From NCBI RefSeq assembly GCF_900683735.1, contig NZ_LR215979.1:310001-374000 (forward strand): 64,000 nucleotides of DNA, written 5' to 3'. Both the position numbers and the translations under genes were made by a program. The stretch is from Fusobacterium ulcerans ATCC 49185. Lineage in GTDB: Bacteria; Fusobacteriota; Fusobacteriia; Fusobacteriales; Fusobacteriaceae. The stretch's first letter is position 1; each line of letters starts with the position of its first letter. Below the pieces are notes generated by a model. That model saw only the letters and a list, made by a program, of their open reading frames with translations. It was not told the DNA's origin and did not search any database. Positions 2,190 through 56,978 of the stretch are shown here, piece after piece.

Positions 2190-2224
2190 AAAAATAATAG
2201 CCTGCTTATACAGCAGACTATTAT
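2190..2224 (-). terminator. Terminator of the organic-acid catabolic operon
   Basis: Read on the minus strand, ATAATAGTCTGCT and AGCAGGCTATTAT form a 13-bp stem (one G-U pair) with a five-base loop, followed directly by TTTTTA. It lies 40 bases past the last operon gene and isolates the GntR gene from read-through. Confidence 0.85.
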
Positions 2225-2263
2225 CAATATTTAAGGGTAAGGATATTATGACAATAAATATTT

Positions 2264-2806
2264 TTATTGTTTGACTTTTTCAAATCCAATGTTAATAGCT
2301 TTTTCGTTCAGAATAAATAATTTTTCTTTTCCATGAAGTTTTTCTTTTAAAGTTTCAAAAGCTTCCTCTTTAGTAAAATCATTTGTAACCTTTGCAAATG
2401 CTCCAAGCATTACTGTATTTAAAACTTTCATATTTCCTAATTCAGTAGCTAGATCAGTAGCAGGAATATAGCAGACATTTACATCCTTTCTAGAAGTAGT
2501 TTTATTTTTTACTATGGAAGATTCAATCATTATCATTCCTCCAGGAATTACTTCATTTTCAAACTTATGTAAGGATACTTCATTCATTGCTATAAGAATA
2601 TCTATTCCATGTTTAATTATAGGAGAACCAATTGGTTCATCTGAATAAATTACTGAACAGTTAGCAGTTCCTCCACGCATTTCTGCTCCATAGGAAGGAA
2701 TCCATGTTACATTTAATCCACGATTCATTTGTATAAGAGCTATTATTTGACCTAGTGTCAGAACTCCTTGACCACCAAATCCTGCAAAAATTATTTTCTT
2801 TTTCAT
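2264..2806 (-). CDS. 2-oxoacid:ferredoxin oxidoreductase, gamma subunit
   Basis: A 180-residue gamma subunit of a multi-subunit 2-oxoacid:ferredoxin oxidoreductase. The N-terminus carries the family motif GFGGQGVLTLGQ (about residues 8-19), and the segment SYGAEMRGGTANCSVI (about 38-53) is typical of KorC/VorC-type subunits. The complex oxidatively decarboxylates a 2-oxoacid to its acyl-CoA and reduces ferredoxin. The gene lies two bases after the beta subunit gene, and GAGGTGAG provides a ribosome site at good spacing. It is the last gene of the operon, followed by a strong terminator. The closely spaced alpha, beta and ferredoxin genes upstream complete the enzyme. The oxoacid used (2-oxoglutarate, branched-chain or other) cannot be read from this subunit. 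Confidence 0.9.
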   Translation of the reverse strand: MKKKIIFAGFGGQGVLTLGQIIALIQMNRGLNVTWIPSYGAEMRGGTANCSVIYSDEPIGSPIIKHGIDILIAMNEVSLHKFENEVIPGGMIMIESSIVKNKTTSRKDVNVCYIPATDLATELGNMKVLNTVMLGAFAKVTNDFTKEEAFETLKEKLHGKEKLFILNEKAINIGFEKVKQ

Positions 2807-2808
2807 AA

Positions 2809-3564
2809 TTATCTCTCACCTCGTACATCTTTGTAAATTCCCAGAGGAAAATAATGTAGCATTTCATTTTTACACCATTCAATAGCATCTTTAGGAGATA
2901 ATCCCCATCCCACATTACATGTTCCTACAATTTCAATTAGAGAAAATCCTTTTCCTTCTTTTTGGCATTTAAAAGCATTAGAGATTGCTTTTTTTGCTTT
3001 AATAACATTTGCAGGAGTAGTTAGAGTAACTCTCTCTATATAGGTAGCTGAAGGAATTTGAGCTAAAACTTCACACATTTTAATTGGCAATCCAGCTGTT
3101 TTAGGATCTCTTCCATAAGGAGAAGTTGTAGTTTTTTGTCCTTCCAAAGTAGTTGGAGCCATTTGTCCACCAGTCATTCCATAGATAGCGTTATTCATAA
3201 AAATTATAGTAATATTCTCTCCTCTTACAGCAGCACTCATTGTTTCTCCTAAACCAATACTGGCAAGATCTCCATCTCCTTGATAAGTAAAAACAAGGGT
3301 ATTTTTATCAGAAATTGATCTTTTTATTCCAGTGGCAACGGCTGGAGCTCTTCCATGAGCAGCTTCTACAGCATCTATATTAAAGTATTCATAACTTAAT
3401 ACAGAACATCCAACTGAAGATACACACACAGAACTATCCAGCTCATTCATCTCTTCTAAGACTTCTGCAACAAGACGATGAGCAATTCCATGGGTACATC
3501 CAGGACAATAATGAGTTTCTTTCTCTGTAAGCCCCTTAGTTCTTTTAAAAATAATTTCCCCCAT
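2809..3564 (-). CDS. 2-oxoacid:ferredoxin oxidoreductase, beta subunit (TPP-binding)
   Basis: A 251-residue thiamine-pyrophosphate-binding subunit. CPGC at residues 20-23 gives the early cysteine pair; the TPP/Mg2+ motif begins GDGDLASIG, and NNAIYGMTGGQMAPTT follows, a pattern typical of the KOR/VOR branch rather than pyruvate oxidoreductase. The later KTTTSPYGRD segment also fits that branch. It forms the active site with the alpha subunit and passes electrons to the ferredoxin subunit encoded two genes upstream. It is separated by one base from the alpha gene and two from the gamma gene, so the three are one translational block. The start is ATG 3564 behind GAGGTG. Substrate specificity is inferred only to class level. 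Confidence 0.9.
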   Translation of the reverse strand: MGEIIFKRTKGLTEKETHYCPGCTHGIAHRLVAEVLEEMNELDSSVCVSSVGCSVLSYEYFNIDAVEAAHGRAPAVATGIKRSISDKNTLVFTYQGDGDLASIGLGETMSAAVRGENITIIFMNNAIYGMTGGQMAPTTLEGQKTTTSPYGRDPKTAGLPIKMCEVLAQIPSATYIERVTLTTPANVIKAKKAISNAFKCQKEGKGFSLIEIVGTCNVGWGLSPKDAIEWCKNEMLHYFPLGIYKDVRGER

Positions 3565-3565
3565 G

Positions 3566-4630
3566 TTATTTCACCTCTTTATAGTATTTTTCTATAGCAT
3601 TAGCCACTTCTTCACTGTCAAATAAATTTCCTCCACATCTCCCATAGAAACCTACTTCATATTTGCCAGCAACTCCAATTTTTACATCTTGAATCATTTG
3701 ACCCATACTAAGTTCAATTGACATAACAGCTTTACAAGATTCAGAAATATTTTTAAAGGCAGCATATGGGAAAGGCCATAAAGTAATAGGGCGTATCAGT
3801 CCAGCTTTTATCCCTTTTTTTCTTAAATCATTTATAGCATTTTTAACTATACGAGCAGATGTTCCATAAGATGCAATGATTATTTCAGCATCATCTACTA
3901 AATAGAGTTCAACCTCAGTTTCATTTTTTTCAATTTCATCATATTTTTTAAATAATTTTTGATTATGATTTTCGCAAGTATCAGTGTCTAAATAAATAGA
4001 AGTAATTATATGATGATCTTTTCTGCCTTTTTTTCCTGTGATAGTCCAGCTGGACTTGTCGATTGAAGGGAAAGTAATATCTTTAATTTCTACTCCTTCC
4101 ATCATTTGAGCTATAGTTCCATCTAATAGGAGCATCACAGGATTTCTATATTTATCAGCTATATAAAAAGCTTTTTGTGTTAGGTCAGAAAGTTCTTGAA
4201 GATTATAAGGAGCATATACTATGACATGATAATCTCCATTTCCCCCACCTCTTGTAGCTTGAAAATAATCTGATTGAGCAGGTTGTATACTTCCTAAACC
4301 AGGCCCTCCCCTACTTACACTTCCAATTACACAAGGAAGTTCAGCTCCACAACAGTATGCAATCCCTTCCTGTTTTAAGGCTATTCCAGGTGAGGAAGAG
4401 GAAGTCATACATCTTACTCCAGTAGATGCAGAGCCATAAACCATATTGATTGCGGCTACTTCAGATTCTGCTTGAACAAAAACTCCTCCTTCTATTTTAG
4501 GAAGTTCTTTTGACATATATTCAGGAATTTCATTTTGAGGAGTTATTGGATAACCAAAAAAATGTAAACATCCAGCTTTGATAGCTGAAGCTCCTAAAAC
4601 TTCTGATCCTTTCATCAATTTTTTTTTCAT
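3566..4630 (-). CDS. 2-oxoacid:ferredoxin oxidoreductase, alpha subunit
   Basis: A 354-residue alpha subunit (KorA/VorB class) containing the pyrimidine-binding region and the C-terminal swivel domain. Recognisable stretches include GYPITPQNEIPEYM near the N-terminus, ESEVAAINMVYGS, and RCMTSSSSPGIALKQEGI, all typical of four-subunit oxoacid oxidoreductases. I place the start at ATG 4630, which has AAGGAAGG about 8 bases upstream; a longer frame to 4672 would overlap the ferredoxin gene and lacks a better ribosome site. It works with the beta, gamma and ferredoxin products of neighbouring genes to make acyl-CoA, CO2 and reduced ferredoxin from a 2-oxoacid. The family does not fix the substrate, but a KOR/VOR-type acid fits better than pyruvate, since a full pyruvate enzyme is encoded at 11085-14108. 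Confidence 0.9.
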   Translation of the reverse strand: MKKKLMKGSEVLGASAIKAGCLHFFGYPITPQNEIPEYMSKELPKIEGGVFVQAESEVAAINMVYGSASTGVRCMTSSSSPGIALKQEGIAYCCGAELPCVIGSVSRGGPGLGSIQPAQSDYFQATRGGGNGDYHVIVYAPYNLQELSDLTQKAFYIADKYRNPVMLLLDGTIAQMMEGVEIKDITFPSIDKSSWTITGKKGRKDHHIITSIYLDTDTCENHNQKLFKKYDEIEKNETEVELYLVDDAEIIIASYGTSARIVKNAINDLRKKGIKAGLIRPITLWPFPYAAFKNISESCKAVMSIELSMGQMIQDVKIGVAGKYEVGFYGRCGGNLFDSEEVANAIEKYYKEVK

Positions 4631-46200: not shown

Positions 46201-46229
46201 AATAAAATTGACAAAAGCGGGGAATGGCA

Positions 46230-47051
46230 ATGATAGAGAAGGATCTTATTTCACTTTATTTAGCAGATATAAGAAAATATAAAATATTAGATAAAGATGA
46301 GGAATTAACCCTTTTAATTAAAGCTAAAGCTGGAGATGAAGAGGCTAAAAATCAGCTGATTTTATCTAATCTCAGATTAGTTGTTAATATTGCAAAAGGA
46401 TATATAAACAAAGGATTGAGTTTTATAGATTTAATCAGTGAAGGAAATTTAGGGCTTATTTATGCAATAGAAAAATTTGATATTACAAAAGGATTTAGAT
46501 TTTCAACATATGCAGTGTGGTGGATTAAACAATCTATAAGTAAGGCTGTTATAGTAAAAGGAAGAGAAATAAGAATTCCGTCATATAAGTATGACCTGTT
46601 AAATAAAGTAAATCGTTATGTTATGTCAAGATTAAAGGATGAAGGGAATTATCCATCAGTGGAAGAGATAGCAATGGAATTGAACATTGAAGCTGATAAA
46701 GTGCAGGATATAATAATGGATTTCCAAGATCCAATGTCTTTGAGCACACAGATAGGAGATGATATCTATTTGGAGGATACTCTAGCTCAACAGGAAGATT
46801 GTTCTATGGAAGAAGAAATTTTTAATGAAATGGGAAGAAAGCAAGTAAGGGATATGGTTAATCAACTAGAAGAACGGGAAAAAGAAATATTAAAATTAAG
46901 ATATGGTTTAGATGGGTATGAAATACATACTTTAGAAGAAATTGGAAATACTCTTAATATAACAAGAGAGAGAGTAAGACAGATAGAGAAAAAAACTTTA
47001 CAAAAGCTTAGATCAAAATACACTAAGGAATTAAAAGGGGATCTTTTTTAG
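46230..47051 (+). CDS. Sigma-70 family RNA polymerase sigma factor (group 2/3)
   Basis: A 273-residue sigma factor lacking region 1.1. Region 1.2 (DLISLYLADIRKYKILD), regions 2.1-2.4 with NLRLVVNIAKGYINKGLSF and FSTYAVWWIKQSISKAV, region 3 and region 4.2 (TLEEIGNTLNITRERVRQIE) are present. The 2.4/3.0 end reads KGREIRIPSY instead of the housekeeping QARTIRIP, and region 3 is short, so it is an alternative sigma rather than RpoD. It starts at ATG 46230 behind GCGGGG; ATG 46224 nearly touches that site. It sits between gpsA and dnaN on the same strand. The regulon is unknown. Confidence 0.85.
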   Translation: MIEKDLISLYLADIRKYKILDKDEELTLLIKAKAGDEEAKNQLILSNLRLVVNIAKGYINKGLSFIDLISEGNLGLIYAIEKFDITKGFRFSTYAVWWIKQSISKAVIVKGREIRIPSYKYDLLNKVNRYVMSRLKDEGNYPSVEEIAMELNIEADKVQDIIMDFQDPMSLSTQIGDDIYLEDTLAQQEDCSMEEEIFNEMGRKQVRDMVNQLEEREKEILKLRYGLDGYEIHTLEEIGNTLNITRERVRQIEKKTLQKLRSKYTKELKGDLF

Positions 47052-47074: not shown

Positions 47075-48205
47075 GTGATTGTAAAATTAAAAAGACAAGA
47101 TTTTTTAAAAAGATTAAAAATAGTTGAAAAAGCTATAAACGAGAATAAAATAAAACCTATAATTTCTTGTGCTTACATAGAAACAAGAGGAGAAAATCTA
47201 TTTTTTTGCGGAACTAATCTTGAAACTACTATTACAACTGAAATGAGATGTGAAGAGATAGCAGAAGAGGGAAAAATAGTATTCCAACATCAATTGGTAG
47301 ATGAGTATTTAAGAGAAATAAAAGATGAAATTGTGACTTTAAGTGTAAGAGATAATAATCTTTTCATAGAGAGTTCTGATTCTTCTTCTGAATTTTCTCT
47401 TATGGAAGCAGAAGATTTTCCTAAAATACTTGTCGAAGCTGATTTCTTTCAAAGACAGGAAGAGTTTAAAATGAACAGTGTAGAATTGGCGGATATATTT
47501 GAAAAAGTAAAATTTGCTGCTTCTAGTTCAAGTGATAATCTTTCTATAAATTGTGTAAGATTAGAAAGTGAAGAAAATAATTTGAAATTTATAACCACTG
47601 ATACTTACAGACTTGTTTTTTTAGAAAAAGAGTTAGAAAAAGTAAATGACAAACTTGGAGTAAGTATACCTTTAAATACAGTTGAAGCTTTAGCTAAACT
47701 TTTGAGAAGCATAGAAGAAACAGAAATAAAATTCTATTTTTATAATAAGCAGGTATATTTTAAACTAGAAGATACCCTTATAATAAGTAGAGTTATTGAT
47801 TTAGCATTTCCTAACTATAAAGGAATATTAGGAAATGATACTTATAATAAAACTCTTATTATAAATAGTGAAAAATTTTTAAAAGTTCTCAGAAGAATAA
47901 TAATATTTGTAAGAAATAATGCAGAATCAAAATATGGAGCAACATTTGAACTGGAAGGAAAAGATCTTAAAGTAAATGGAGTAAATGATATTGCAAAGAT
48001 AAATGAACAGTTGGAAGTAGAATATGAAGGAGATAGGATAAAAATTTCTCTTAATGCTAAATTTCTGTCTGATTTTATCCAAAACTTGAATAAAGAAAGT
48101 AATATTATGCTTAATTTCATCAGTTCAAATAGTTCAGTTAAAATAAAAAAAGAAAATGATAATAATTATCTTTACATAGTAATGCCATTGGCATTAAAAG
48201 ATTAA
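47075..48205 (+). CDS. dnaN: DNA polymerase III beta sliding clamp
   Basis: A 376-residue protein with the three-domain clamp fold; recognisable parts include MIVKLKRQDFLKRLKIVEKA, CAYIETRGENLFFCGTNLE, ITTDTYRLVFLEKEL and the C-terminal YLYIVMPLALKD (clamp C-termini end in a MP-hydrophobic pattern). It holds polymerases on DNA. It starts at GTG 47075 behind GGAGG. Its place far from dnaA is unusual compared with the classical dnaA-dnaN order, but dnaX and dnaB lie 8-11 kb downstream. Confidence 0.93.
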   Translation: MIVKLKRQDFLKRLKIVEKAINENKIKPIISCAYIETRGENLFFCGTNLETTITTEMRCEEIAEEGKIVFQHQLVDEYLREIKDEIVTLSVRDNNLFIESSDSSSEFSLMEAEDFPKILVEADFFQRQEEFKMNSVELADIFEKVKFAASSSSDNLSINCVRLESEENNLKFITTDTYRLVFLEKELEKVNDKLGVSIPLNTVEALAKLLRSIEETEIKFYFYNKQVYFKLEDTLIISRVIDLAFPNYKGILGNDTYNKTLIINSEKFLKVLRRIIIFVRNNAESKYGATFELEGKDLKVNGVNDIAKINEQLEVEYEGDRIKISLNAKFLSDFIQNLNKESNIMLNFISSNSSVKIKKENDNNYLYIVMPLALKD

Positions 48206-48213
48206 TTTTAAAT

Positions 48214-48247
48214 GGGAGCTAATAGGAAATATTAGCTCTATTTTTTC
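48214..48247 (+). terminator. Terminator of dnaN
   Basis: GAGCTAATA and TATTAGCTC form a 9-bp stem around GGAAA, followed by TATTTTTT. Confidence 0.88.
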
Positions 48248-48269
48248 TTAATGATTAATTTTTGATTGT

Positions 48270-48298
48270 TTGAAATATAGATTTAAATATGATATAAT
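48270..48298 (+). promoter_or_regulatory. Strong promoter of the DUF116-TPR-TonB operon
   Basis: TTGAAA (48270-48275), a 17-base spacer and TATAAT (48293-48298) with an extended TG element. This is one of the best consensus promoters in the window and probably drives the tonB operon. Confidence 0.75.
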
Positions 48299-48327
48299 TT
48301 CCTTAATAATTTTGAAGAGGTAAAAAG

Positions 48328-48876
48328 ATGAGCAGTAATTTTTTTAGAAAAATAGTATATGATTTTTACTATCTGCTATTTTTATTTGTAGATAGAAAAA
48401 AGAAAGAAATAGAGATAAATAATATAGCTGTAAAGTTTTTAAATTACAATAATAAGAAAGTAATGGCTTCTTTGAAAGAAAAGGATATAAAAAAATTGTT
48501 GATTCTACTTCCTCATTGTGTTCAAAAATATACATGTCCTTATAAAGTAACTTCCAATATAGAAAATTGTAAGAATTGTGGACAATGTGTAATAGGTGAA
48601 CTTTTGAGCATGAAAAAAGAATTTCCAATAGAGGTGAGAATAGCTACTGGTGGAACTCTTGCAAGGAAACATATAAAGGAATTAAAACCAGATTTAGTAG
48701 CAGCAGTAGCATGTAAAAGAGATCTTATGTCAGGAATACATGATGCATTTCCTGTAAAAGTTTATGGGATTTTTAATAAAATTTTAAATGAACCATGTAT
48801 TGATACAACTGTTTCTAGTGAAAAAATAAGGAGTTTTTTAAAAGAAATATACAAAACTCAAGGAGGAGAAATGTGA
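48328..48876 (+). CDS. DUF116 domain protein
   Basis: A 182-residue protein with family DUF116 features: LLPHCVQKYTCPYKVT, CKNCGQCVIGEL, RIATGGTLARKHIKEL, AAVACKRDLMSGIHD and PCIDTTV. Several cysteines (in CPYKV, CKNCGQC, ACKRD, PCID) could bind a metal or iron-sulfur cluster. The N-terminus has a hydrophobic stretch (YYLLFLFV). Function is unknown. Its ATG follows GAAGAGG. The GTG of the next gene overlaps its stop by four bases, so it is coupled to the TPR protein of the TonB operon. Confidence 0.85.
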   Translation: MSSNFFRKIVYDFYYLLFLFVDRKKKEIEINNIAVKFLNYNNKKVMASLKEKDIKKLLILLPHCVQKYTCPYKVTSNIENCKNCGQCVIGELLSMKKEFPIEVRIATGGTLARKHIKELKPDLVAAVACKRDLMSGIHDAFPVKVYGIFNKILNEPCIDTTVSSEKIRSFLKEIYKTQGGEM

Positions 48877-51725
48877 AAAAGATACACTTGATACTTGCAT
48901 TATTATTAAGCACGAATATCATTTTAGCTGCCTCAGAGAGAGAAGATATTGCATTTCTGGATGAACTTTATAAACAGAAAAAATTCTCAATGGCCATAAC
49001 AGAGTCTGTGAGCTTTTTAAAAAGATACCCTGATTCTAGATATACAAGAAATATTCAAGATAGAATAGCAAAAACATACTTTCTTCAGGAAGATTATAAC
49101 AATGCTATAAAGTACTTTAAAATCATTTTAATGAATAATGATATAAAAGCAAAAGAAAAAGATGAGATTAATTTTTATCTTATGAAAAGTTATACTGCAT
49201 TAGGAGATGTACAAAATAGTGACTTTTATATGGAAGCTTTAGATAAAAATGGAGATTTTTATGAAAGAGCATTGTATGATTCAGGAATGACTTATTTAGC
49301 TAAAGAAAATTATCCAAAAGCAGAAGAGTTATTTCAAAGAGTTATACAACTGAATAAAAAGTATTACAGTGAAGCTGTTTTGAGTATGGCAATGTCATCA
49401 TATAATAAAGCAGACTATAAGAGAACTCTTATATTTTTAAATGAATATTCAAATGGAAAAGATAAAAATAAAAATCAATCTCTTTTGAATTATTTATATG
49501 GTTCAGCTTATTATAAATTAAATTCAACAGAAGATGCAGTAACATATTTTCAAAAAGTTACAAATAAAGATAAGACGAGTTCATATGGGAAAAAGTCTAT
49601 ATTGAGCTTAATAGAGATATATAGCAATAGAGGCGATGTCAACTCTATGCAGAAATATCTTGCTATGCTTGAAAATACTAAAGAGTATGGAGAAGCAATG
49701 AGAATGATAGGAGATCTTTATGCTACAAGAGGAGAATATGAAAAAGCTGTAAGTTATTATTCAAAAACTAATACACCAAATGATCCAAAACTTATGTATG
49801 GATATGGATTTTCACTATATAAATTAAACAGATTAAAAGAAGCTCAAAAATATTTTGAAGGATTAAGAAATACTACTTATTATAATCAGTCTATATATTA
49901 TATATTCGCGATTGATTACAGATTAAAAAACTATAAGAAAATAGTAAGAAATAGAGATGAAGTAAAAAGAGTTGTTGTAAATCAGCAAGATACTGATAAC
50001 ATTAACTTAATGATAGCCAATTCAGCTTATGAAATTGGAGAATATGCTCTTTCAAAAGATTATTATGGAAGGCTTTATGCAAGAAATTCTAATAAAGAAA
50101 ATCTTTACAGAATAATAGTTATAGATAATAAAGTTGGAGATATTGATGATATTGCAAAAAGATTCAATGAGTATAAGACTAAATATCCAGATGATAAAGA
50201 ATATAAAAGAAATATATATTTTTCTGTAGGAGAAGCATACTATAAAAGAAATAAAGTATCAGAAGCAATAGATGTATATAAAGAATTTTTGGCTTCAGAT
50301 AGGGATTTCAGTATTTTAAACAATCTTATTGTTTCACTGTTAAGTGAACAGAGATATGATGAAATGCTTACATATCTTAATGATGAAGGGACAGAAAATA
50401 CAAAAGATAACATATATTTGAAGGGAATAGCTTTTGTAGGAATGGGAAGATATGAAGAGGCAGATACAGCTTTTAACCAATTGGAAGCAGATACAACTTC
50501 TGATGCAGCACTTCTGACAAAGGTGAAGTTTAATAAGATGAGAAATTATTTCTTGTGGGGAAAATATGAAGATGCTATAAAATATGGAGAAGAGTATCTT
50601 ACATTAGAGAATCCAGAAGGAAAAAATGAAATAATGGATAAATTAGCTATCAGTTATTTTAGAATAGATAATTTTGAAAAAAGCAGAGAGTATTATAATA
50701 AACTTTCTACAACTCCTGAATTTGAAGCTTATGGAAAATTTCAAATAGCAGATACTTATTATGCTGAAAAAAACTTTGAAAAAGCTAAAGAGGAATATAA
50801 ACTTGTTGCAGAACAATATGGAGATGGACAGTATGGAGAAAAAGCATACTATTGGTATCTCACTACTTTAATTAATTTAGGAGAGAATGAAACTTTTGAA
50901 AAAGAGAAGGAGACATTTCTTGCAAAATATCCTGGAAGTAAAATGAGAGATAATCTTCTTATATTATCAGGAGAAGTATATGAAAGTGGAAATAATAATG
51001 ATAAAGCACTAGAAAATTATAAAGAACTTCTTTCAACTTCAGAGGATAAAGTAGTTAAAGAAAGCACAGCTTCTAAAATATTAGATATTCATTTAAGTAA
51101 AAATAATATAGAGGAAGCTAAAAAATACATAGAGAATATTACAAATATAGACACTAAAAATTATTATAATTCTCTTATTTATGAGAAACAGAATAACAAA
51201 GAAGCTGCAATGAAAGAATATGAAAAACTTTTAGAAAGTAGCAAATATAAAGATTATGCTTCTGTAAATATAGCTTCTAAATTATTTGCTGAAAAGAATT
51301 ATAAAAAAGCAAGAGAATACTATGAACAGGTAAATAATATGGAGAATAGTATCTATAAAGATCTTGTATTGTTCCAAATAGCATCTATTGATGAAATAGA
51401 AAAGAAAAATGAAGAAGCCTTGAGAGGTTATACAAAAGGATATGTAATGTATGATGGAAAGTATTCTCAAGTATCAAAATTAAAAGCAGCCCAGTTAAGT
51501 GAAAAAATGGGAAAAGAAAAAGATGCAGAAACATTGTATAGAGAACTTTATGCTCTTGATAAAAAACTTATATACAAAGAATTTGTTCTTGAAAAAATGA
51601 TCTATTTTGCTTTAAAAGCTGAAAATAAAGTAGATGGTAAAAAATATTATTTAGAATTAAAAGCAATCAATGCTAAAAAAGCAGAAAAATATGCAGATTT
51701 TTTTAAAGAGGAGGAAAATAAATGA
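48873..51725 (+). CDS. Large exported tetratricopeptide-repeat protein
   Basis: A 950-residue protein with a signal peptide (LILALLLSTNIILAAS, cleavage near residue 20) followed by about 20 or more helical TPR-like repeats over the whole length, with repeated YYKxxxFxxA patterns. It has no other domain. It is encoded in an operon with ExbB, ExbD and TonB, so it is likely a periplasmic scaffold that acts with the TonB complex on the outer membrane or envelope. Start is GTG 48873 behind AAGGAGG, overlapping the DUF116 stop. Its tail overlaps the next gene by four bases (ATGA). Confidence 0.85.
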   Translation: MKKIHLILALLLSTNIILAASEREDIAFLDELYKQKKFSMAITESVSFLKRYPDSRYTRNIQDRIAKTYFLQEDYNNAIKYFKIILMNNDIKAKEKDEINFYLMKSYTALGDVQNSDFYMEALDKNGDFYERALYDSGMTYLAKENYPKAEELFQRVIQLNKKYYSEAVLSMAMSSYNKADYKRTLIFLNEYSNGKDKNKNQSLLNYLYGSAYYKLNSTEDAVTYFQKVTNKDKTSSYGKKSILSLIEIYSNRGDVNSMQKYLAMLENTKEYGEAMRMIGDLYATRGEYEKAVSYYSKTNTPNDPKLMYGYGFSLYKLNRLKEAQKYFEGLRNTTYYNQSIYYIFAIDYRLKNYKKIVRNRDEVKRVVVNQQDTDNINLMIANSAYEIGEYALSKDYYGRLYARNSNKENLYRIIVIDNKVGDIDDIAKRFNEYKTKYPDDKEYKRNIYFSVGEAYYKRNKVSEAIDVYKEFLASDRDFSILNNLIVSLLSEQRYDEMLTYLNDEGTENTKDNIYLKGIAFVGMGRYEEADTAFNQLEADTTSDAALLTKVKFNKMRNYFLWGKYEDAIKYGEEYLTLENPEGKNEIMDKLAISYFRIDNFEKSREYYNKLSTTPEFEAYGKFQIADTYYAEKNFEKAKEEYKLVAEQYGDGQYGEKAYYWYLTTLINLGENETFEKEKETFLAKYPGSKMRDNLLILSGEVYESGNNNDKALENYKELLSTSEDKVVKESTASKILDIHLSKNNIEEAKKYIENITNIDTKNYYNSLIYEKQNNKEAAMKEYEKLLESSKYKDYASVNIASKLFAEKNYKKAREYYEQVNNMENSIYKDLVLFQIASIDEIEKKNEEALRGYTKGYVMYDGKYSQVSKLKAAQLSEKMGKEKDAETLYRELYALDKKLIYKEFVLEKMIYFALKAENKVDGKKYYLELKAINAKKAEKYADFFKEEENK

Positions 51726-52063
51726 AAAAATTAGTAGTATCTTTATTTTTATTAAGTGCCCTTGTAGTGAGTGCAGAAGACAGTGTGACTGCAATAGACA
51801 AAGAAGTAACTGGTGTAAACAAAGAACAGCTTGAAATGAAAGAGATAGAAACGAAAGAAATGTTGCTGAAAGGACAAAAAATTGATTCTGGCTCAGTTGA
51901 GTTATCAGGAGAAAATCTTAAAAATCAACAACAAAAAATAAAAGTAGTTCAAAATGAGAAATCAGCTTTAGAAGATGAGTTATCACAAGGAGTGGAGAAA
52001 AAATCATTCCTTAAATATGTAATAGGAGCATTAGGAGTAGTAGTTTTAATTATAGCACTTTAA
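51722..52063 (+). CDS. Small exported coiled-coil protein with C-terminal membrane anchor
   Basis: A 113-residue protein with a signal peptide (cleavage near VVSAED), a charged helix likely to form a coiled coil (about residues 20-90, with NKEQLEMKEIETKEMLLKG) and a C-terminal hydrophobic segment (YVIGALGVVVLIIAL). It overlaps the TPR gene (ATGA) and precedes exbB. It is probably an accessory part of the TonB apparatus. I recognise no named family. Confidence 0.72.
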   Translation: MKKLVVSLFLLSALVVSAEDSVTAIDKEVTGVNKEQLEMKEIETKEMLLKGQKIDSGSVELSGENLKNQQQKIKVVQNEKSALEDELSQGVEKKSFLKYVIGALGVVVLIIAL

Positions 52064-52100
52064 TTAAATTTACATAAGAGAGTATAAAGGAGAAATAGAT

Positions 52101-52712
52101 ATGTATTGGATTAAAAATGGTGGAATTCTAATGTATTTTATTTTAGCTATGTCTATCATAGGACTGGCAGTAGTAATAGAGAGATTTATTTATTTTAAAT
52201 TAAGTGAGAGAGATAGTTTCAATAAAATAAATCCAGAACTTAGACAGCTTATAGAAAAAGGGTCTGTAAAGGAAGCAATAGTTTTACTTAATAATCAAAA
52301 AGCTTCAGCAGCTAGAGTTTTAAAAGATATATTAATACAATATTATAAAAGCAACAGTAAGGATCCTGTAATGTTGGAAGAAAAGGGAAAAGAAAGTGCA
52401 ATGGCACAGGTACCTCTTTTAGAAAAACACATGTGGATGCTTTCATTAGTTGCTCATATAACTCCTTTATTAGGACTATTAGGAACTGTTACAGGAATGA
52501 TTAAGGCATTTCAGGCAGTATCTGTCCATGGAACAGGAGATGCTTCTGTTTTGGCAAAAGGTATATCAGAAGCATTATTTACTACTGCTGGAGGACTTTT
52601 TGTAGCCATTCCTGCTACTATTTTCTATAATTATTTTAATAAAAAAATAGATGAAACAATAAATGATATGGAAAAAACTAGTACAGAATTGATAAACTAC
52701 TTCAGAAGATAG
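52101..52712 (+). CDS. exbB: ExbB/TolQ/MotA-type proton channel
   Basis: A 203-residue membrane protein with three hydrophobic segments. ERFIYFKL after the first, HITPLLGLLGTVTGMIKAFQ at the second and FTTAGGLFVAIPATIFYNYF at the third are classic ExbB/TolQ motifs. With ExbD it converts proton motive force into movement of TonB. The ATG has AAAGGAG upstream. Genes exbB-exbD-tonB follow in order with small gaps. The exact pair (Exb versus Tol) is set by the adjacent tonB and lack of tolAB/pal. Confidence 0.92.
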   Translation: MYWIKNGGILMYFILAMSIIGLAVVIERFIYFKLSERDSFNKINPELRQLIEKGSVKEAIVLLNNQKASAARVLKDILIQYYKSNSKDPVMLEEKGKESAMAQVPLLEKHMWMLSLVAHITPLLGLLGTVTGMIKAFQAVSVHGTGDASVLAKGISEALFTTAGGLFVAIPATIFYNYFNKKIDETINDMEKTSTELINYFRR

Positions 52713-52720
52713 GAGAAATT

Positions 52721-53158
52721 ATGAAAATTGAAAGAACAAAAAGACGTGGAAAGGGAGAATTAGCATTAGAAATAACTCCCCTTATTGATGTTGTGTTTCT
52801 TTTATTAATATTTTTTCTGGTTGCAACTACTTTTGAAGATATTAACAGTGGGATCAAAATAGACCTGCCGCAGTCTACGATCAGAGAGATAAAGAATATA
52901 AAAGAAATACAAGTTGCAATAAATAAAAATAAAGAAATTGTCTTGAATTTTAAAGATAAAGGTAAAAATCAGAAAGTTAAAGTTAATAAGAATAACTTAA
53001 AAGCAGAACTTGAAAATAAACTGAAGGAATCTGAGGAAAAAAATATAGTAATAAGTGCTGATAAAAGTCTAGATTATGGATTTATAGTAGAAATAATGAC
53101 TATTTCTAAAGAAGCAGGAGCAGCCTCGCTGGATATAGATACAGCAAGCAGTAAATAA
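52721..53158 (+). CDS. exbD: ExbD/TolR-type biopolymer transport protein
   Basis: A 145-residue protein with one N-terminal membrane segment carrying the functional aspartate in ITPLIDVVFLLLIFFLVAT (Asp23) and a periplasmic domain with DLPQSTIREI. It forms the proton-conducting complex with ExbB. It starts 8 bases after exbB and is followed by tonB. Complete. Confidence 0.92.
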   Translation: MKIERTKRRGKGELALEITPLIDVVFLLLIFFLVATTFEDINSGIKIDLPQSTIREIKNIKEIQVAINKNKEIVLNFKDKGKNQKVKVNKNNLKAELENKLKESEEKNIVISADKSLDYGFIVEIMTISKEAGAASLDIDTASSK

Positions 53159-53172
53159 ATAAGGAGAGAATT

Positions 53173-54108
53173 ATGAAAAGAGTTGATTATGTAAGCTTTG
53201 GTCTTTCTATACTTCTAAACCTGCTTATCATACTGCTTATACCTGGTCTTTCAGTGGAAACTATAGTAGATAAAAAAATTAAAGTTGGATTAGTTTCTTA
53301 TGATAATAACAGCAGAATAAAGATGGAAGGAACTAAAAATACTAACTCTAAAACTAAAAATCTGACAGCTGAAACTAGAAAAAAGACAGAAAAAGTTGAA
53401 ACTCAGGTCAAGAAAGAAAGTACAGTAAAAAAAGAACCTACCACTCAGGTAAAAGCAAAAGAACCTGAAAAGAAGCCAACTTTAAGTGATATAGCTAAAT
53501 CTATATCTGGTCCTGAAATAGATGTTTTATCTGGAATAAATGACATAAGCCATTCTGTTGTTAGAGAAAAAGTAAAAACAATTCCTAAAAGGCAAACTGA
53601 TGATAAACAAGGGGTAATTTCAAAAGATAATCTTGTTGGAGAAAAACTAGATTTAGCATCTGATTCAGATATGAATATCCAGGGAAAGGAACAATTCTTA
53701 GTTGAGGAAGATGGAAAGCTTGCCTTTAACTCAGAAGAGGGAAAAGACTTGGAATTTGAAAGAATATTGAAAGCAGATGGAGATGTAGAAGGTTTGCCAA
53801 GTGGATATAGGCTTGGAACAGAAGATGGAAATATTGTTGCTAGATGGGATAATACCAACAGGGAACCTGTATATCCTGAAAGTGCTCAGCTAAGAGGACT
53901 TCATGGAACAGTAAAGATAAGAATGAATATTGATGAAAATGGAAATGTAAATTCTTTATTCCTTGAAAAAGGAAGTGGAGTTCCAGAAATCAATAGTGCT
54001 ATAGAAGAGATAGGAAGAACTTGGAAAATATATTTGAGTAAAAATGGAATGAACGTAAAAGGCGATGTTATACTGGAATATAACTTTACATTAAGAGGAA
54101 AAAATTAA
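53173..54108 (+). CDS. tonB: TonB energy-transducing protein
   Basis: A 311-residue protein with one N-terminal membrane segment (about residues 9-27), a long lysine/threonine/glutamate-rich spacer (about 50-150) and a C-terminal TonB domain (about 225-311) with EPVYPESAQLRGLHGTVKIR and ENGNVNSLFLEKGSG. It carries energy to outer-membrane receptors. The Pro-Lys repeat of classical TonB is replaced by KKES/KKEP-type charged repeats. No TonB-dependent receptor is in the window. Confidence 0.88.
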   Translation: MKRVDYVSFGLSILLNLLIILLIPGLSVETIVDKKIKVGLVSYDNNSRIKMEGTKNTNSKTKNLTAETRKKTEKVETQVKKESTVKKEPTTQVKAKEPEKKPTLSDIAKSISGPEIDVLSGINDISHSVVREKVKTIPKRQTDDKQGVISKDNLVGEKLDLASDSDMNIQGKEQFLVEEDGKLAFNSEEGKDLEFERILKADGDVEGLPSGYRLGTEDGNIVARWDNTNREPVYPESAQLRGLHGTVKIRMNIDENGNVNSLFLEKGSGVPEINSAIEEIGRTWKIYLSKNGMNVKGDVILEYNFTLRGKN

Positions 54109-54125
54109 TTTGTGAGGTGGATGGT

Positions 54126-55517
54126 TTGATTCTTCTAGGGTTTAGATTAGATAAAAGTTTAAAAGAGGAATTAGAAAATAATTTTGAAAATGAATTAACT
54201 TTTGCAGAAAATATAACTGATTTTATAGAATATTTAAAAAATAAAAAGTATGAAACTATAGTTATAGAAGAAAGAAATCTTCAGGAAGAAGCTCTTATTA
54301 ATTTAGTAAAAAAAGTGGGAGAATATCAAAAAAAAGGTGTTATAATAATTCTTGGAGAAACTTCTAATTTAAAAGTGGTTGCAGGGAGTGTAAAGGCTGG
54401 AGCATATGATTATATACTAAAACCAGTAGACAATAATACTGTTATAAAAATAATAGAAAAATCTGTAAAAGATTATAAATTATTGGCTGAAAGAGTGGAT
54501 AAACATAAGAGTTCTGGAGATAAACTCATAGGACAGACAAAAGAAATAGTAGAACTTTACAAGATGATAGGGAAAGTTGCAAGTAGCAGAGTACCTGTTT
54601 TAGTAGTGGGAGAAAAGGGAACTGGAAAAACAAGTGTAGCAAAGTCTATTCATCAATTTAGTGATTGGTCAAATGAGCCTCTTATAAGTATTAACTGTAC
54701 TTCTTTTCAGAATGAGTTATTAGAAAGAAAGATGTTTGGATATGAAAAAGGAGCATTTACAGGAGCTGTTTTTTCTCAAATAGGAGATCTTGAAAAAGCT
54801 AATGGGGGAACACTCCATTTAGGAAATGTAGAATCACTGAGCTTAGATTTACAATCTAAAATACTCTATTTTTTAGAAGAAGGAGAGTTTTTTAGAATGG
54901 GAGGAGCAGAACCTATAAAAATTGATTTGAGAGTAGTAGCCAGTACATGTGAAAATCTTGAAGAACTTATAAATCAAGGCAGATTTATTGATGAACTATA
55001 CAGAAAATTAAAAGTTCTTGAAGTAAATATTCCACCATTGAGAGAAAGAAAGGATGATATACCTTTAATAATAGACCATTATTTAATAGAATGTAATGAA
55101 GAACTTCATAAAAATGTAAAAGGTGTAAGTAAGCCGGCTTTGAAAAAAATATTAAGATATGACTGGCCTGGAAATGTTAATGAACTTAAAAATGCAGTTA
55201 AATCTGCTGTGGCATTATGCAGAGGGGGCTCTATACTTATAGAAGACCTGCCAAGTAATGTGTTGGGAACAAAAGTTACAAAAAGAAAAGGAGATGCACA
55301 GACAAGTGCTCTCAAAGAATGGGTAAAGGTAGAGATGGAAGTGTATAAAACTGGTAATCAGAAAGGTTATTATGGGAATATCATTTCAAAAGTAGAGAAA
55401 GAACTTATCCATCAGGTATTGGAAATGACTAATGGAAAAAAAGTAGAAACAGCAGAAATACTTGGGATAACAAGAAATACTTTAAGAACAAAAATGAGTA
55501 ATTATGGTTTGGAGTAG
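54126..55517 (+). CDS. NtrC-like (bEBP-derived) regulator with apparently dead ATPase
   Basis: A 463-residue protein (TTG 54126, with GAGG 8 bases upstream; a GTG at 54117 overlaps it). An N-terminal pseudo-receiver ends near residue 115; its third strand reads TIVIEERN, without the phosphoacceptor aspartate. The central AAA+ domain keeps Walker A GEKGTGKTS and EKGAFTGA, but Walker B is GTLHLGNVE where family members have GTLFLDEI, the sensor asparagine is cysteine (VVASTCEN), and the arginine-finger FREDLYYRL reads FIDELYRKL. A Fis-type helix-turn-helix ends the protein. It probably binds DNA or protein without ATP-driven open-complex formation. Its target may be the TonB operon just upstream. 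Confidence 0.85.
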   Translation: MILLGFRLDKSLKEELENNFENELTFAENITDFIEYLKNKKYETIVIEERNLQEEALINLVKKVGEYQKKGVIIILGETSNLKVVAGSVKAGAYDYILKPVDNNTVIKIIEKSVKDYKLLAERVDKHKSSGDKLIGQTKEIVELYKMIGKVASSRVPVLVVGEKGTGKTSVAKSIHQFSDWSNEPLISINCTSFQNELLERKMFGYEKGAFTGAVFSQIGDLEKANGGTLHLGNVESLSLDLQSKILYFLEEGEFFRMGGAEPIKIDLRVVASTCENLEELINQGRFIDELYRKLKVLEVNIPPLRERKDDIPLIIDHYLIECNEELHKNVKGVSKPALKKILRYDWPGNVNELKNAVKSAVALCRGGSILIEDLPSNVLGTKVTKRKGDAQTSALKEWVKVEMEVYKTGNQKGYYGNIISKVEKELIHQVLEMTNGKKVETAEILGITRNTLRTKMSNYGLE

Positions 55518-55523
55518 GATGAA

Positions 55524-56978
55524 ATGCATATAACATTATATAGAAAATATAGACCTAAAAATTTTGAAGAGATAGCAGGGCAAAAGGAAATAGTAAAAAC
55601 TCTGAAAGCATCATTGAGAAATGGCAAAACTTCCCATGCATATCTTTTTACAGGTCCTAGAGGTGTGGGGAAAACTACAATAGCCAGACTAATAGCTAAA
55701 GGGGTCAATTGCCTGGAAAATGGTGTTACTGATGAACCTTGTAATAAATGTGAAAATTGTTTGTCAATAAATGATGGAAGTTTTATGGACATGATTGAAA
55801 TTGATGCTGCTTCTAACAGAGGAATAGATGAAATCAGACAATTGAAAGAAAAAATAAATTACCAGCCTTCAAAAGGAAGGAAAAAAATATATATTATAGA
55901 TGAGGTACATATGCTGACAAAAGAAGCATTTAATGCTCTTTTGAAAACATTGGAAGAACCTCCTGAACATGTAATATTTATATTGGCAACAACAGAGGCA
56001 GATAAAATACTTCCAACTATCATTTCAAGATGTCAGAGATATGACTTTAAAACTTTATCTCCAGCTGAAATGAAAGAAAAACTTGGAGAAATATCTAAAA
56101 ATGAAGGAGTTTCTGTACCAGATGATGTACTTGATTTGATTTATGAAAATTCTGGTGGAAGTATGAGAGATGCTACTTCTATACTGGAAAGACTTATGAT
56201 AACTTGTTTAGATGAAGAGATAACTTTAGAGAAATGTGAAAAGGTTCTTGGGGTAACTCCTGTAAAGCAAATGAAGGAATTTTTAGATAATGTCATAGAA
56301 AAAAAATACAGAGAGCTTGTAAAAATGCTTGATGAATTTTGGAGTGAATCTTTGGAAATTGAACTTTTCTTTAAGGATTTTGCTAAATATTGCAAAACTC
56401 TTATGAGCAGATCAGAATTGGAAGTAGATAAAGGATTAAAAATAATTGGAGCTGTCTATGATTCTTTGAATAAATTTAAATATGAAGAAGATAAAAGAAT
56501 GGTTGGCTATGTAGTTATTAATAATCTTTTAAGTACTAAAGCTACAGTGGTTCAAGAGAGAGTAGTAGAAAAAATAATTGAAAAACCAGTGACAGTACAT
56601 CAAAATAGTTCAAGTACAGAAGAAACTATTGATCTTTCAGGAATAACACTGGAATATGTAATAAGTCAGTGGAAAGATATAGTTGAAGAAGCTAAAAAAG
56701 AAAAAATAACATTGGGGGCATTTTTAATAAGTGCTAAGCCATATAAAATTGAGGGAGATACATTATTTATTGGATTTGAAAGCGAAAATTCTTTTGCTAA
56801 AGAGCAAATGGAAACAAGTACTTATGATGATGTATTTTTAGAAGTAGTAAAGAAAATAATCAATCCAAAAATAAAAGTAAAATATATACTTGTTGGTAAA
56901 AAGAGAGAAATCAGCAAGGGTGAAAATGATTTTACTAAAAAAATAGTAGATTTTTTTGGTGGAGAGATTATGAGATAA
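55524..56978 (+). CDS. dnaX: DNA polymerase III subunit gamma/tau
   Basis: A 484-residue clamp-loader protein. Walker A GPRGVGKTT (Gly44-Thr51), zinc-binding cysteines (Cys63, 73, 76, 79), Walker B IYIIDEVHML and the SRC motif ISRCQRYDF are present. Domain III and a short tau-like C-terminal region follow. It loads the beta clamp (dnaN, upstream). The ATG follows the regulator stop by six bases, so it may be co-transcribed with it. Confidence 0.94.
   Translation: MHITLYRKYRPKNFEEIAGQKEIVKTLKASLRNGKTSHAYLFTGPRGVGKTTIARLIAKGVNCLENGVTDEPCNKCENCLSINDGSFMDMIEIDAASNRGIDEIRQLKEKINYQPSKGRKKIYIIDEVHMLTKEAFNALLKTLEEPPEHVIFILATTEADKILPTIISRCQRYDFKTLSPAEMKEKLGEISKNEGVSVPDDVLDLIYENSGGSMRDATSILERLMITCLDEEITLEKCEKVLGVTPVKQMKEFLDNVIEKKYRELVKMLDEFWSESLEIELFFKDFAKYCKTLMSRSELEVDKGLKIIGAVYDSLNKFKYEEDKRMVGYVVINNLLSTKATVVQERVVEKIIEKPVTVHQNSSSTEETIDLSGITLEYVISQWKDIVEEAKKEKITLGAFLISAKPYKIEGDTLFIGFESENSFAKEQMETSTYDDVFLEVVKKIINPKIKVKYILVGKKREISKGENDFTKKIVDFFGGEIMR

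What the first reader, a model, noticed from the sequence alone, without database searches (positions are those of the whole stretch)
54126..55517. NtrC-type regulator with GAFTGA but without Walker B, sensor and arginine-finger residues
The AAA+ domain keeps Walker A and the sigma-54-contacting EKGAFTGA but has LGN in place of the Walker B DE pair, a cysteine for the sensor asparagine and no clear arginine finger; the receiver also lacks its aspartate. It appears to be a retired bEBP kept as a DNA-binding or scaffold protein, possibly acting with sigma-70 or an alternative sigma (one is encoded at 46230-47051).
Basis: seen in the sequence. Interest (0 to 1): 0.66.

Follow-up and report, generated by a model that had tools for sequence, protein, structure and literature searches.

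The report
NtrC-like regulator with dismantled ATPase
A gene-control protein of a type that normally burns ATP to switch on a special class of promoters has, across a whole bacterial family, swapped its ATP-burning parts for other residues while keeping its ATP pocket and DNA-binding end, which suggests a motor has been turned into an ordinary DNA-binding regulator.

Summary
The gene at 54126-55517 is an NtrC-architecture protein whose AAA+ domain keeps Walker A (K168) but has GN for Walker B DE, I and K for the two arginines, E for the aspartate between them, C at sensor I and N at sensor II. It is not a local error: among 57 syntenic orthologues from 98 Fusobacteriota genomes, 43 have none of six catalytic residues and only one (G062) has all six; 80 of 80 outside homologues have all six. 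The new residues are themselves conserved and the gene is under strong purifying selection, so it is remodelled, not retired. Its Thr is among the most variable AAA+ positions in the family; parsimony says the window's Thr was regained from Lys. Nine of 46 good genomes with the gene lack sigma-54; in two it is the only Sigma54_activat protein found. Best explanation: an ATPase-dead, probably ATP-binding, NtrC-derived DNA-binding regulator acting without sigma-54, at sigma-70-type promoters. Target genes were not found. A 2011 survey noted a Fusobacterium nucleatum EBP with Glu in GAFTGA and no sigma-54; the passages read do not mention loss of the ATPase site.

The parts
54126..55517 (+). NtrC-architecture regulator, 463 aa, TTG start (GTG 54117 possible), stop included
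   Evidence: 57 orthologues at the same place next to tonB and/or dnaX
54114..54120 (+). GAGGTGG, likely ribosome-binding site for TTG 54126
   Evidence: read; orthologue starts
54126..54476 (+). degenerate receiver (residues 1-117): no acidic pair, Glu for the phospho-Asp, Gly for Thr/Ser, Lys kept
   Evidence: Pfam Response_reg 32.7 bits (cut-off 30.2); site counts; model
54525..55025 (+). AAA+ Sigma54_activat domain
   Evidence: PF00158, 186 bits; model matches NtrC1, FleQ, PspF and VpsR folds
54609..54635 (+). Walker A GEKGTGKTS; K168 (54627-54629) is Lys in 57 of 57 orthologues
54750..54767 (+). L1 loop GAFTGA; Thr212 (54759-54761, ACA); this Thr is not conserved in the family
54822..54827 (+). 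Gly233-Asn234 in place of Walker B Asp-Glu
54948..54950 (+). Cys275 in place of the sensor I Asn
54987..55007 (+). I288, E290, K294 in place of the R-x-D-x-x-x-R residues
   Evidence: motif in PMC3419264
55041..55286 (+). AAA+ lid; Asn352 (55179-55181) in place of the sensor II Arg
   Evidence: PF25601
55386..55505 (+). Fis/NtrC-type HTH, most conserved part of the protein
   Evidence: PF02954 44.3 bits; residues 421-463 mean identity 0.90, 22 of 43 invariant in 51 rows
48270..48298 (+). sigma-70-like promoter TTGAAA-N17-TATAAT upstream of the run of genes 48328-56978; its -10 element is shared by the aligned relatives; no obvious dyad
48873..54108 (+). upstream co-directional genes: TPR protein, 113-aa protein, exbB, exbD, tonB
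   Evidence: exbB/exbD/tonB names by resemblance, not from a family call on each
55524..56978 (+). dnaX-like gene 6 bp downstream
   Evidence: name by resemblance

Best explanation
It is an NtrC-derived transcription factor whose AAA+ domain can bind, but almost certainly not usefully hydrolyse, ATP, and which no longer drives sigma-54 open-complex formation. Shown from sequence: family-wide replacement of the Walker B pair, the R-x-D-x-x-x-R residues and mostly sensor II; retention of Walker A and of the NtrC/Fis-type HTH; drift of the GAFTGA Thr; persistence in genomes without sigma-54; purifying selection; a fixed place in the exbBD-tonB/dnaX gene run. Inferred: it is constitutively oligomeric (the matching PspF arginine and Asp substitutions give constitutive hexamers), is not controlled by phosphorylation of its receiver, and acts as activator or repressor at ordinary sigma-70-type promoters through DNA binding. 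A role in envelope or TonB-linked genes is a guess from the neighbourhood.
For: Catalytic sites: 0 of 6 intact in 43 of 57 orthologues, 6 of 6 in one; controls 6 of 6 in 80 of 80 outside homologues and 19 of 20 own-genome bEBPs. In PspF single changes D107A, E108A, R162A, D164A and R168K each cut ATPase Vmax from 39.5 to 0.12-0.23 per min, and changes at R162, D164, R168 give constitutive hexamers (PMC3419264 passages). Walker A Lys 57 of 57. GAFTGA Thr 5 of 57, with 162 of 172 AAA+ columns more conserved in the 52-row clade. By my count, 9 of 46 good genomes (at least 90% complete, at most 5% contaminated) with the orthologue have no RpoN DBD or CBD match over the cut-off: G002, G018, G037, G041, G042, G043, G048, G057, G097; in G048 and G097 it is the only PF00158 match at 1e-25. 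dN/dS 0.010-0.046 against the four closest relatives. tonB by BLAST upstream in 54 of 57 loci, dnaX downstream in 55 of 57. R. capsulatus NtrC, lacking GAFTGA, acts with sigma-70 and needs ATP binding, not hydrolysis (as told in PMC10274813 passages).
Against: No binding site or target was found, so regulation itself is unproven. PspF E108Q, hydrolysis-poor, still remodels sigma-54 holoenzyme on ATP binding, so loss of hydrolysis alone does not exclude sigma-54 action; the window's genome has sigma-54 and the window's copy does have GAFTGA. T-to-E is listed as tolerated in P. aeruginosa PhhR (PMC3162934), and 23 of 57 orthologues have E. The gene is cleanly absent in G039, G040 and G001, so it is dispensable there.
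Confidence: 0.62

Rival explanations
1. It still works with sigma-54 by ATP binding alone, as the hydrolysis-poor PspF E108Q does, at least in the window's genus.
For: GAFTGA present in the window and three close relatives; genome has RpoN; E108Q remodels on ATP binding.
Against: E108Q changes one Walker B residue and leaves the Asp and the arginines, and its activity needs the GAFTGA Thr; here all are gone and the Thr is Lys, Glu, Pro, Phe or Gln in most relatives; nine good genomes lack RpoN.
Confidence: 0.1
2. It is a dominant-negative or modulatory partner that joins mixed rings with catalytically active bEBPs.
For: Walker A kept; the own genome has 20 other bEBPs; in PspF, subunits defective in Walker B and in the arginines complement each other in trans.
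Against: It is the only PF00158 protein at 1e-25 in G048 and G097; it lacks both cis and trans residues; its own HTH is its most conserved part.
Confidence: 0.1
3. It is a nucleoid-associated or architectural DNA-binding protein, a Fis-like use of the NtrC C-terminus, rather than a gene-specific regulator.
For: HTH most conserved; pseudo-receiver and dead ATPase; next to dnaX and near dnaN and dnaB. The Fis-NtrC kinship is recalled; phmmer also matches Fis weakly.
Against: Receiver, AAA+ core and lid are also under purifying selection; no abundance data.
Confidence: 0.12
4. It is a decaying relic, a pseudogene in slow motion.
For: Different lineages show different catalytic losses (G063, G097, g10); clean absence in G039 and G040.
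Against: dN/dS 0.010-0.046 in four close pairs, lower than dnaX or tonB in the same pairs; open frame without stops in all 57 matches; replaced residues conserved.
Confidence: 0.03

Closest known systems
Sigma-54 bEBPs of NtrC type (NtrC1 of Aquifex, PspF)
   Same: Receiver/AAA+/lid/HTH architecture, fold (NtrC1 1ny6 Z 30.5 at 1.8 A over 245 residues), Walker A
   Different: Walker B, arginine/Asp triad and mostly sensor II replaced; L1 Thr not conserved; receiver not phosphorylatable by sequence
Rhodobacter capsulatus NtrC and Caulobacter NtrC (sigma-70-acting NtrC)
   Same: NtrC-type proteins that lost the sigma-54 contact; R. capsulatus NtrC needs ATP binding, not hydrolysis (passages)
   Different: Those have deletions of L1 and working phosphorylation; Caulobacter NtrC keeps Walker B and needs it for ammonium use. 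Here L1 length is kept in most rows and the whole catalytic centre is replaced
VpsR of Vibrio cholerae
   Same: bEBP fold (7v2b Z 28.0, rmsd 13.0 over 353 residues); sigma-70-acting and ATP-independent as told in PMC10274813
   Different: About 26% identity; c-di-GMP-binding by its PDB title; no c-di-GMP link tested here
Putative EBP of Fusobacterium nucleatum ATCC 25586 (Francke et al. 2011, PMC3162934)
   Same: Fusobacterial EBP with Glu for the GAFTGA Thr in a genome without sigma-54, suggested to be sigma-70 dependent; probably this family, as Glu is the commonest state here

Membership tests
[quoted passage not shown]
   PF00158 186 bits, PF25601 85.5, PF02954 44.3, all over cut-off
[quoted passage not shown]
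   K168; 57 of 57 orthologues
[quoted passage not shown]
   Gly-Asn; D in 1 of 57, E in 3 of 57 orthologues; 80 of 80 outside homologues have DE
[quoted passage not shown]
   I288, E290, K294; motif from PMC3419264
[quoted passage not shown]
   Present in the window; Thr in 5 of 57 orthologues and inferred to be a regain in the window's clade
[quoted passage not shown]
   needs biochemistry
NtrC / NR(I) equivalog (TIGR01818) | score over the curated cut-off | tested here: not met
   345.9 bits against cut-off 558.6
Phosphorylatable response regulator | acidic pair, phospho-Asp, Thr/Ser, Lys | tested here: not met
   Only Lys99 kept; Glu at the Asp site; acidic pair and Thr/Ser lost
Sigma-70-acting NtrC-type regulators | lost or changed L1 sigma-54 contact | tested here: inconclusive
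   True for 52 of 57 family members at the Thr, not for the window's own copy
Sigma-70-acting NtrC-type regulators | action at sigma-70 promoters | not testable with these tools
   no target known; own operon has a sigma-70-like promoter

The most novel reading that the evidence does not exclude
A lineage-wide pseudo-AAA+ transcription factor: the ancestral sigma-54 motor (still intact in one outgroup lineage) was rebuilt in Fusobacteriaceae into an ATP-locked, non-hydrolysing DNA-binding oligomer with a newly conserved Gly-Asn/Ile/Glu site, outlived sigma-54 itself in several genomes, and now controls envelope genes through the housekeeping polymerase. A second conserved NtrC-type regulator in an envelope gene cluster lost the sigma-54 contact the opposite way, keeping the ATPase.
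Probability: 0.3. Interest if true: 0.72.

Novelty: new variant of a known kind. Interest (0 to 1): 0.52.

Why it matters
It gives a sequence-resolved case of an AAA+ transcription motor losing its engine while its ATP pocket and DNA-binding parts stay under selection, with the intact type surviving in one lineage. Automatic annotation labels such proteins sigma-54-dependent activators; here that label would mislead, including in species that have no sigma-54. It makes testable whether ATP binding alone can run an NtrC-type regulator on the housekeeping polymerase.

Tried and rejected
Local sequencing error: rejected, the catalytic site is changed in 56 of 57 orthologues in some form.

Relic: rejected by dN/dS and conservation. 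dS exceeds 1 from L030 on, so only the three nearest pairs are free of saturation.

Partnership with the sigma gene at 46224: tested in 14 genomes; its nearest matches (52-62% identity) occur also in G068, G084 and G040, which lack the regulator, and in G037, G020 and G062 it lies far from the regulator. Not supported.

Autoregulation through a dyad in the operon promoter: upstream regions aligned for ten g1 rows and for nine rows of the window with other genera; only the promoter core is shared. Nothing found; a weak or distant site is not excluded.

An NtrC-like palindrome TGCAC-N7-GTGCA with up to one mismatch in nine genomes: more hits than the reversed control in seven genomes, fewer in G062 and G063; the reversed control has CpG-containing halves and is unfair in these AT-rich genomes; no site shared beyond close species was seen in the list. 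Dropped.

Sigma-54 promoters around the intact orthologue L078: only loose matches; the locus does not reach the operon start. Inconclusive.

Structure: model mean pLDDT 81.6, residues 118-133 and 383-393 under 50; it supports the fold, not nucleotide state or oligomer. Families absent from the VIA-align list are not excluded.

Branching order below the intact G062 protein is not firm: G063, G097 and g10 rows are long branches, so whether losses happened once or several times is open.

Literature: ten searches in open-access PMC listed no paper on this family that I recognised beyond PMC3162934 (section 6 part 1 and passages read). Passages only were read of PMC10274813, PMC4132715, PMC7175178, PMC3419264, PMC11705814 and PMC1274295. 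Subscription papers were not searched. The primary papers on R. capsulatus NtrC and VpsR were not read.

Full report
WHAT IS THERE. The gene at 54126-55517 (plus strand) encodes 463 aa from TTG 54126, preceded by GAGGTGG; GTG 54117 is also open. Pfam finds a weak receiver (32.7 bits), Sigma54_activat (186), the AAA+ lid (85.5) and HTH_8 (44.3). Among NCBIfam equivalogs the best is ntrC, 345.9 bits, well under its cut-off of 558.6. It lies 17 bp after tonB and 6 bp before dnaX, in a run of genes with a sigma-70-like promoter at 48270-48298.

THE CATALYTIC SITE. Numbering is from TTG. Walker A is GEKGTGKTS with K168. Walker B is Gly-Asn (233-234), sensor I Cys275, the R-x-D-x-x-x-R segment is I288, E290, K294, sensor II is Asn352. 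In PspF each of D107A, E108A, R162A, D164A and R168K alone lowers ATPase Vmax from 39.5 to 0.12-0.23 per minute (PMC3419264, passages). All five positions are changed here at once, so an inactive ATPase is a firm inference, though not measured. The same paper reports that changes at the arginines and D164 give constitutive hexamers.

IS IT FIXED? A search of 98 Fusobacteriota genomes gave matches at 1e-60 in 62. I took as orthologues 57 proteins of 40% identity or more found beside tonB and/or dnaX; the other matches, at 32-41%, are paralogues. L064 and L082 are cut by contig ends. By tblastn tonB lies upstream in 54 of 57 and dnaX downstream in 55 of 57; the exceptions are two contig ends and L078 (a TonB-like ORF by eye) for tonB, and the two g12 genomes for dnaX. 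Of six catalytic sites (D233, E234, R288, D290, R294, R352), 43 of 57 orthologues have none intact, 2 have one, 10 have two, 1 has three and 1 has six. Controls: six of six in 80 of 80 homologues from a named genome set (the best 80 of 566, none titled as Fusobacteriota) and in 19 of 20 other bEBPs of the same genome, the last having five.

AN INTACT RELATIVE. The G062 orthologue (L078) has GAFTGA, LFLDE, ATN, FRDDLYHR and NIRELKN, in a genome with RpoN, at the same place. In the tree it splits first from the other 56 orthologues (support 92/96). Its receiver already lacks the acidic pair and the Thr/Ser, so receiver decay seems to precede ATPase loss. In the 52-row clade of the window's family the state is Gly-Asn-Ile-Glu; G063, G097 and g10 differ (EE, ED, KK or KE at Walker B), so loss has gone different ways, although the branching there is uncertain.

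REMODELLED, NOT RETIRED. Within the 52-row clade, site 233 is Gly in 49 (Ala 3), 234 Asn in 51, 288 Ile in 51, 290 Glu in 52; 0 to 54 of 172 AAA+ columns are more conserved. dN/dS of the whole gene against the four nearest relatives is 0.010, 0.023, 0.036 and 0.046, below dnaX (0.058-0.142) and tonB (0.052-0.139) in the same pairs; it rises to 0.168 against more distant ones, where dS is saturated. The C-terminal 43 residues are the most conserved part (mean 0.90; 22 of 43 invariant in 51 rows).

GAFTGA. The Thr is present in 5 of 57 orthologues: the window, three close relatives and G062. Others have Glu 23, Lys 12, Phe 7, Pro 4, Gln 2, Asn 2, Ala 1, Ser 1. In the 52-row clade 162 of 172 AAA+ columns are more conserved. 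Parsimony on the tree gives Thr lost at the base and Lys-to-Thr in the window's clade, then Thr-to-Ala in G027; the codons (AAA in sister species, ACA in the window) need one base change. So the window's GAFTGA is probably a chance regain at a freed site. Caveats: Glu is listed as tolerated in PhhR, and the reconstruction rests on a site with many states.

WITHOUT SIGMA-54. The own genome has RpoN and 20 further bEBPs. By my count, 46 genomes with the orthologue are at least 90% complete and at most 5% contaminated; nine of them have no RpoN DBD or CBD match over the cut-off: G002, G018, G037 (one contig), G041, G042, G043, G048, G057, G097. G002 and G097 have one sub-threshold match each; G046, not counted among the nine, has only short DBD matches of about 25 to 34 positions. 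In G048 and G097 the orthologue is the only PF00158 match at 1e-25. Conversely G039, G040 and G001 have tonB directly followed by dnaX without the gene, so it can be lost. In f4 (33 genomes) no PF00158 match at 1e-25 was found, nor an RpoN CBD match; six had weak DBD matches.

STRUCTURE. AlphaFold2 with 23 rows gives mean pLDDT 81.6. VIA-align places it with NtrC1 (1ny6 Z 30.5, 1.8 A over 245 residues; the longer 1ny5 Z 30.8 with rmsd 19.1 over 362 residues, presumably from domain placement), FleQ, NtrX, PspF and VpsR (Z 28.0, rmsd 13.0 over 353). The fold is kept; the model says nothing on nucleotide state.

HOW IT MOST LIKELY WORKS. A DNA-binding oligomer, held together by the AAA+ domain with or without bound ATP, not switched by receiver phosphorylation, acting on sigma-70-type promoters. 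The nearest precedent is R. capsulatus NtrC, which lacks GAFTGA, acts with sigma-70 and needs ATP binding, not hydrolysis (PMC10274813, passages). Steps shown: residue losses, conservation, sigma-54-less genomes. Steps inferred: ATP binding, oligomerisation, sigma-70. Targets: unknown; two attempts found nothing. The place in the tonB operon suggests envelope functions; in F. nucleatum the exbB-exbD-tonB operon is said to respond to carbenicillin (unpublished data cited in PMC11705814).

WHAT IS KNOWN. Francke et al. 2011 (PMC3162934, section 6 part 1 and passages) noted an EBP of F. nucleatum ATCC 25586 with Glu in GAFTGA in a genome without sigma-54 and proposed sigma-70 dependence, calling it a PhhR orthologue. 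It is probably a member of this family. Ten searches of open-access papers listed nothing further on it. I therefore rate the finding a new variant of a known kind: sigma-54-independent NtrC-type regulators are known; a family-wide replacement of the whole catalytic centre, with an intact relative, appears not to have been described in what I could read.

Noticed in passing
G000:C1:3428052-3429383 (L115:2956-4341) and L103-L122: A second conserved NtrC-type regulator, between an RseP-like protease gene and a PpiD/SurA-like gene (names by resemblance), keeps both arginines in 20 of 20 and all six catalytic sites in 12 of 20 sampled, but has lost the GAFTGA Thr in 15 of 20 (Pro, Leu, Ile and others): the opposite way of leaving sigma-54. 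It is the only PF00158 protein at 1e-25 in G039 and G040, where no RpoN was found.
   Followed up: partly
L222, L223, L227: The regulator is cleanly missing between tonB and dnaX in G039, G040 and G001.
   Followed up: yes
L056, L060, L221: In genus g12 the gene stays with tonB in two genomes while no dnaX follows; in the third (G051) dnaX has other neighbours and no orthologue was found at 1e-60.
   Followed up: partly
46224-47051: RpoD/RpoS-like sigma of 275 aa, distinct from the longer primary-type sigma at G000:C1:3433687; matches in all 14 genomes tested, some at the same place near the tonB run.
   Followed up: partly
L078 (G062), oriented bases 2215-3879: A 554-aa exported-looking, beta-barrel-like ORF (by eye) sits between the TPR and exbB genes where the window has the 113-aa ORF 51722-52063, which has no Pfam match.
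   Followed up: no
48205-48300: A hairpin with a T-run (by eye) follows dnaN, then the sigma-70-like promoter of the TPR-exbBD-tonB gene run.
   Followed up: no
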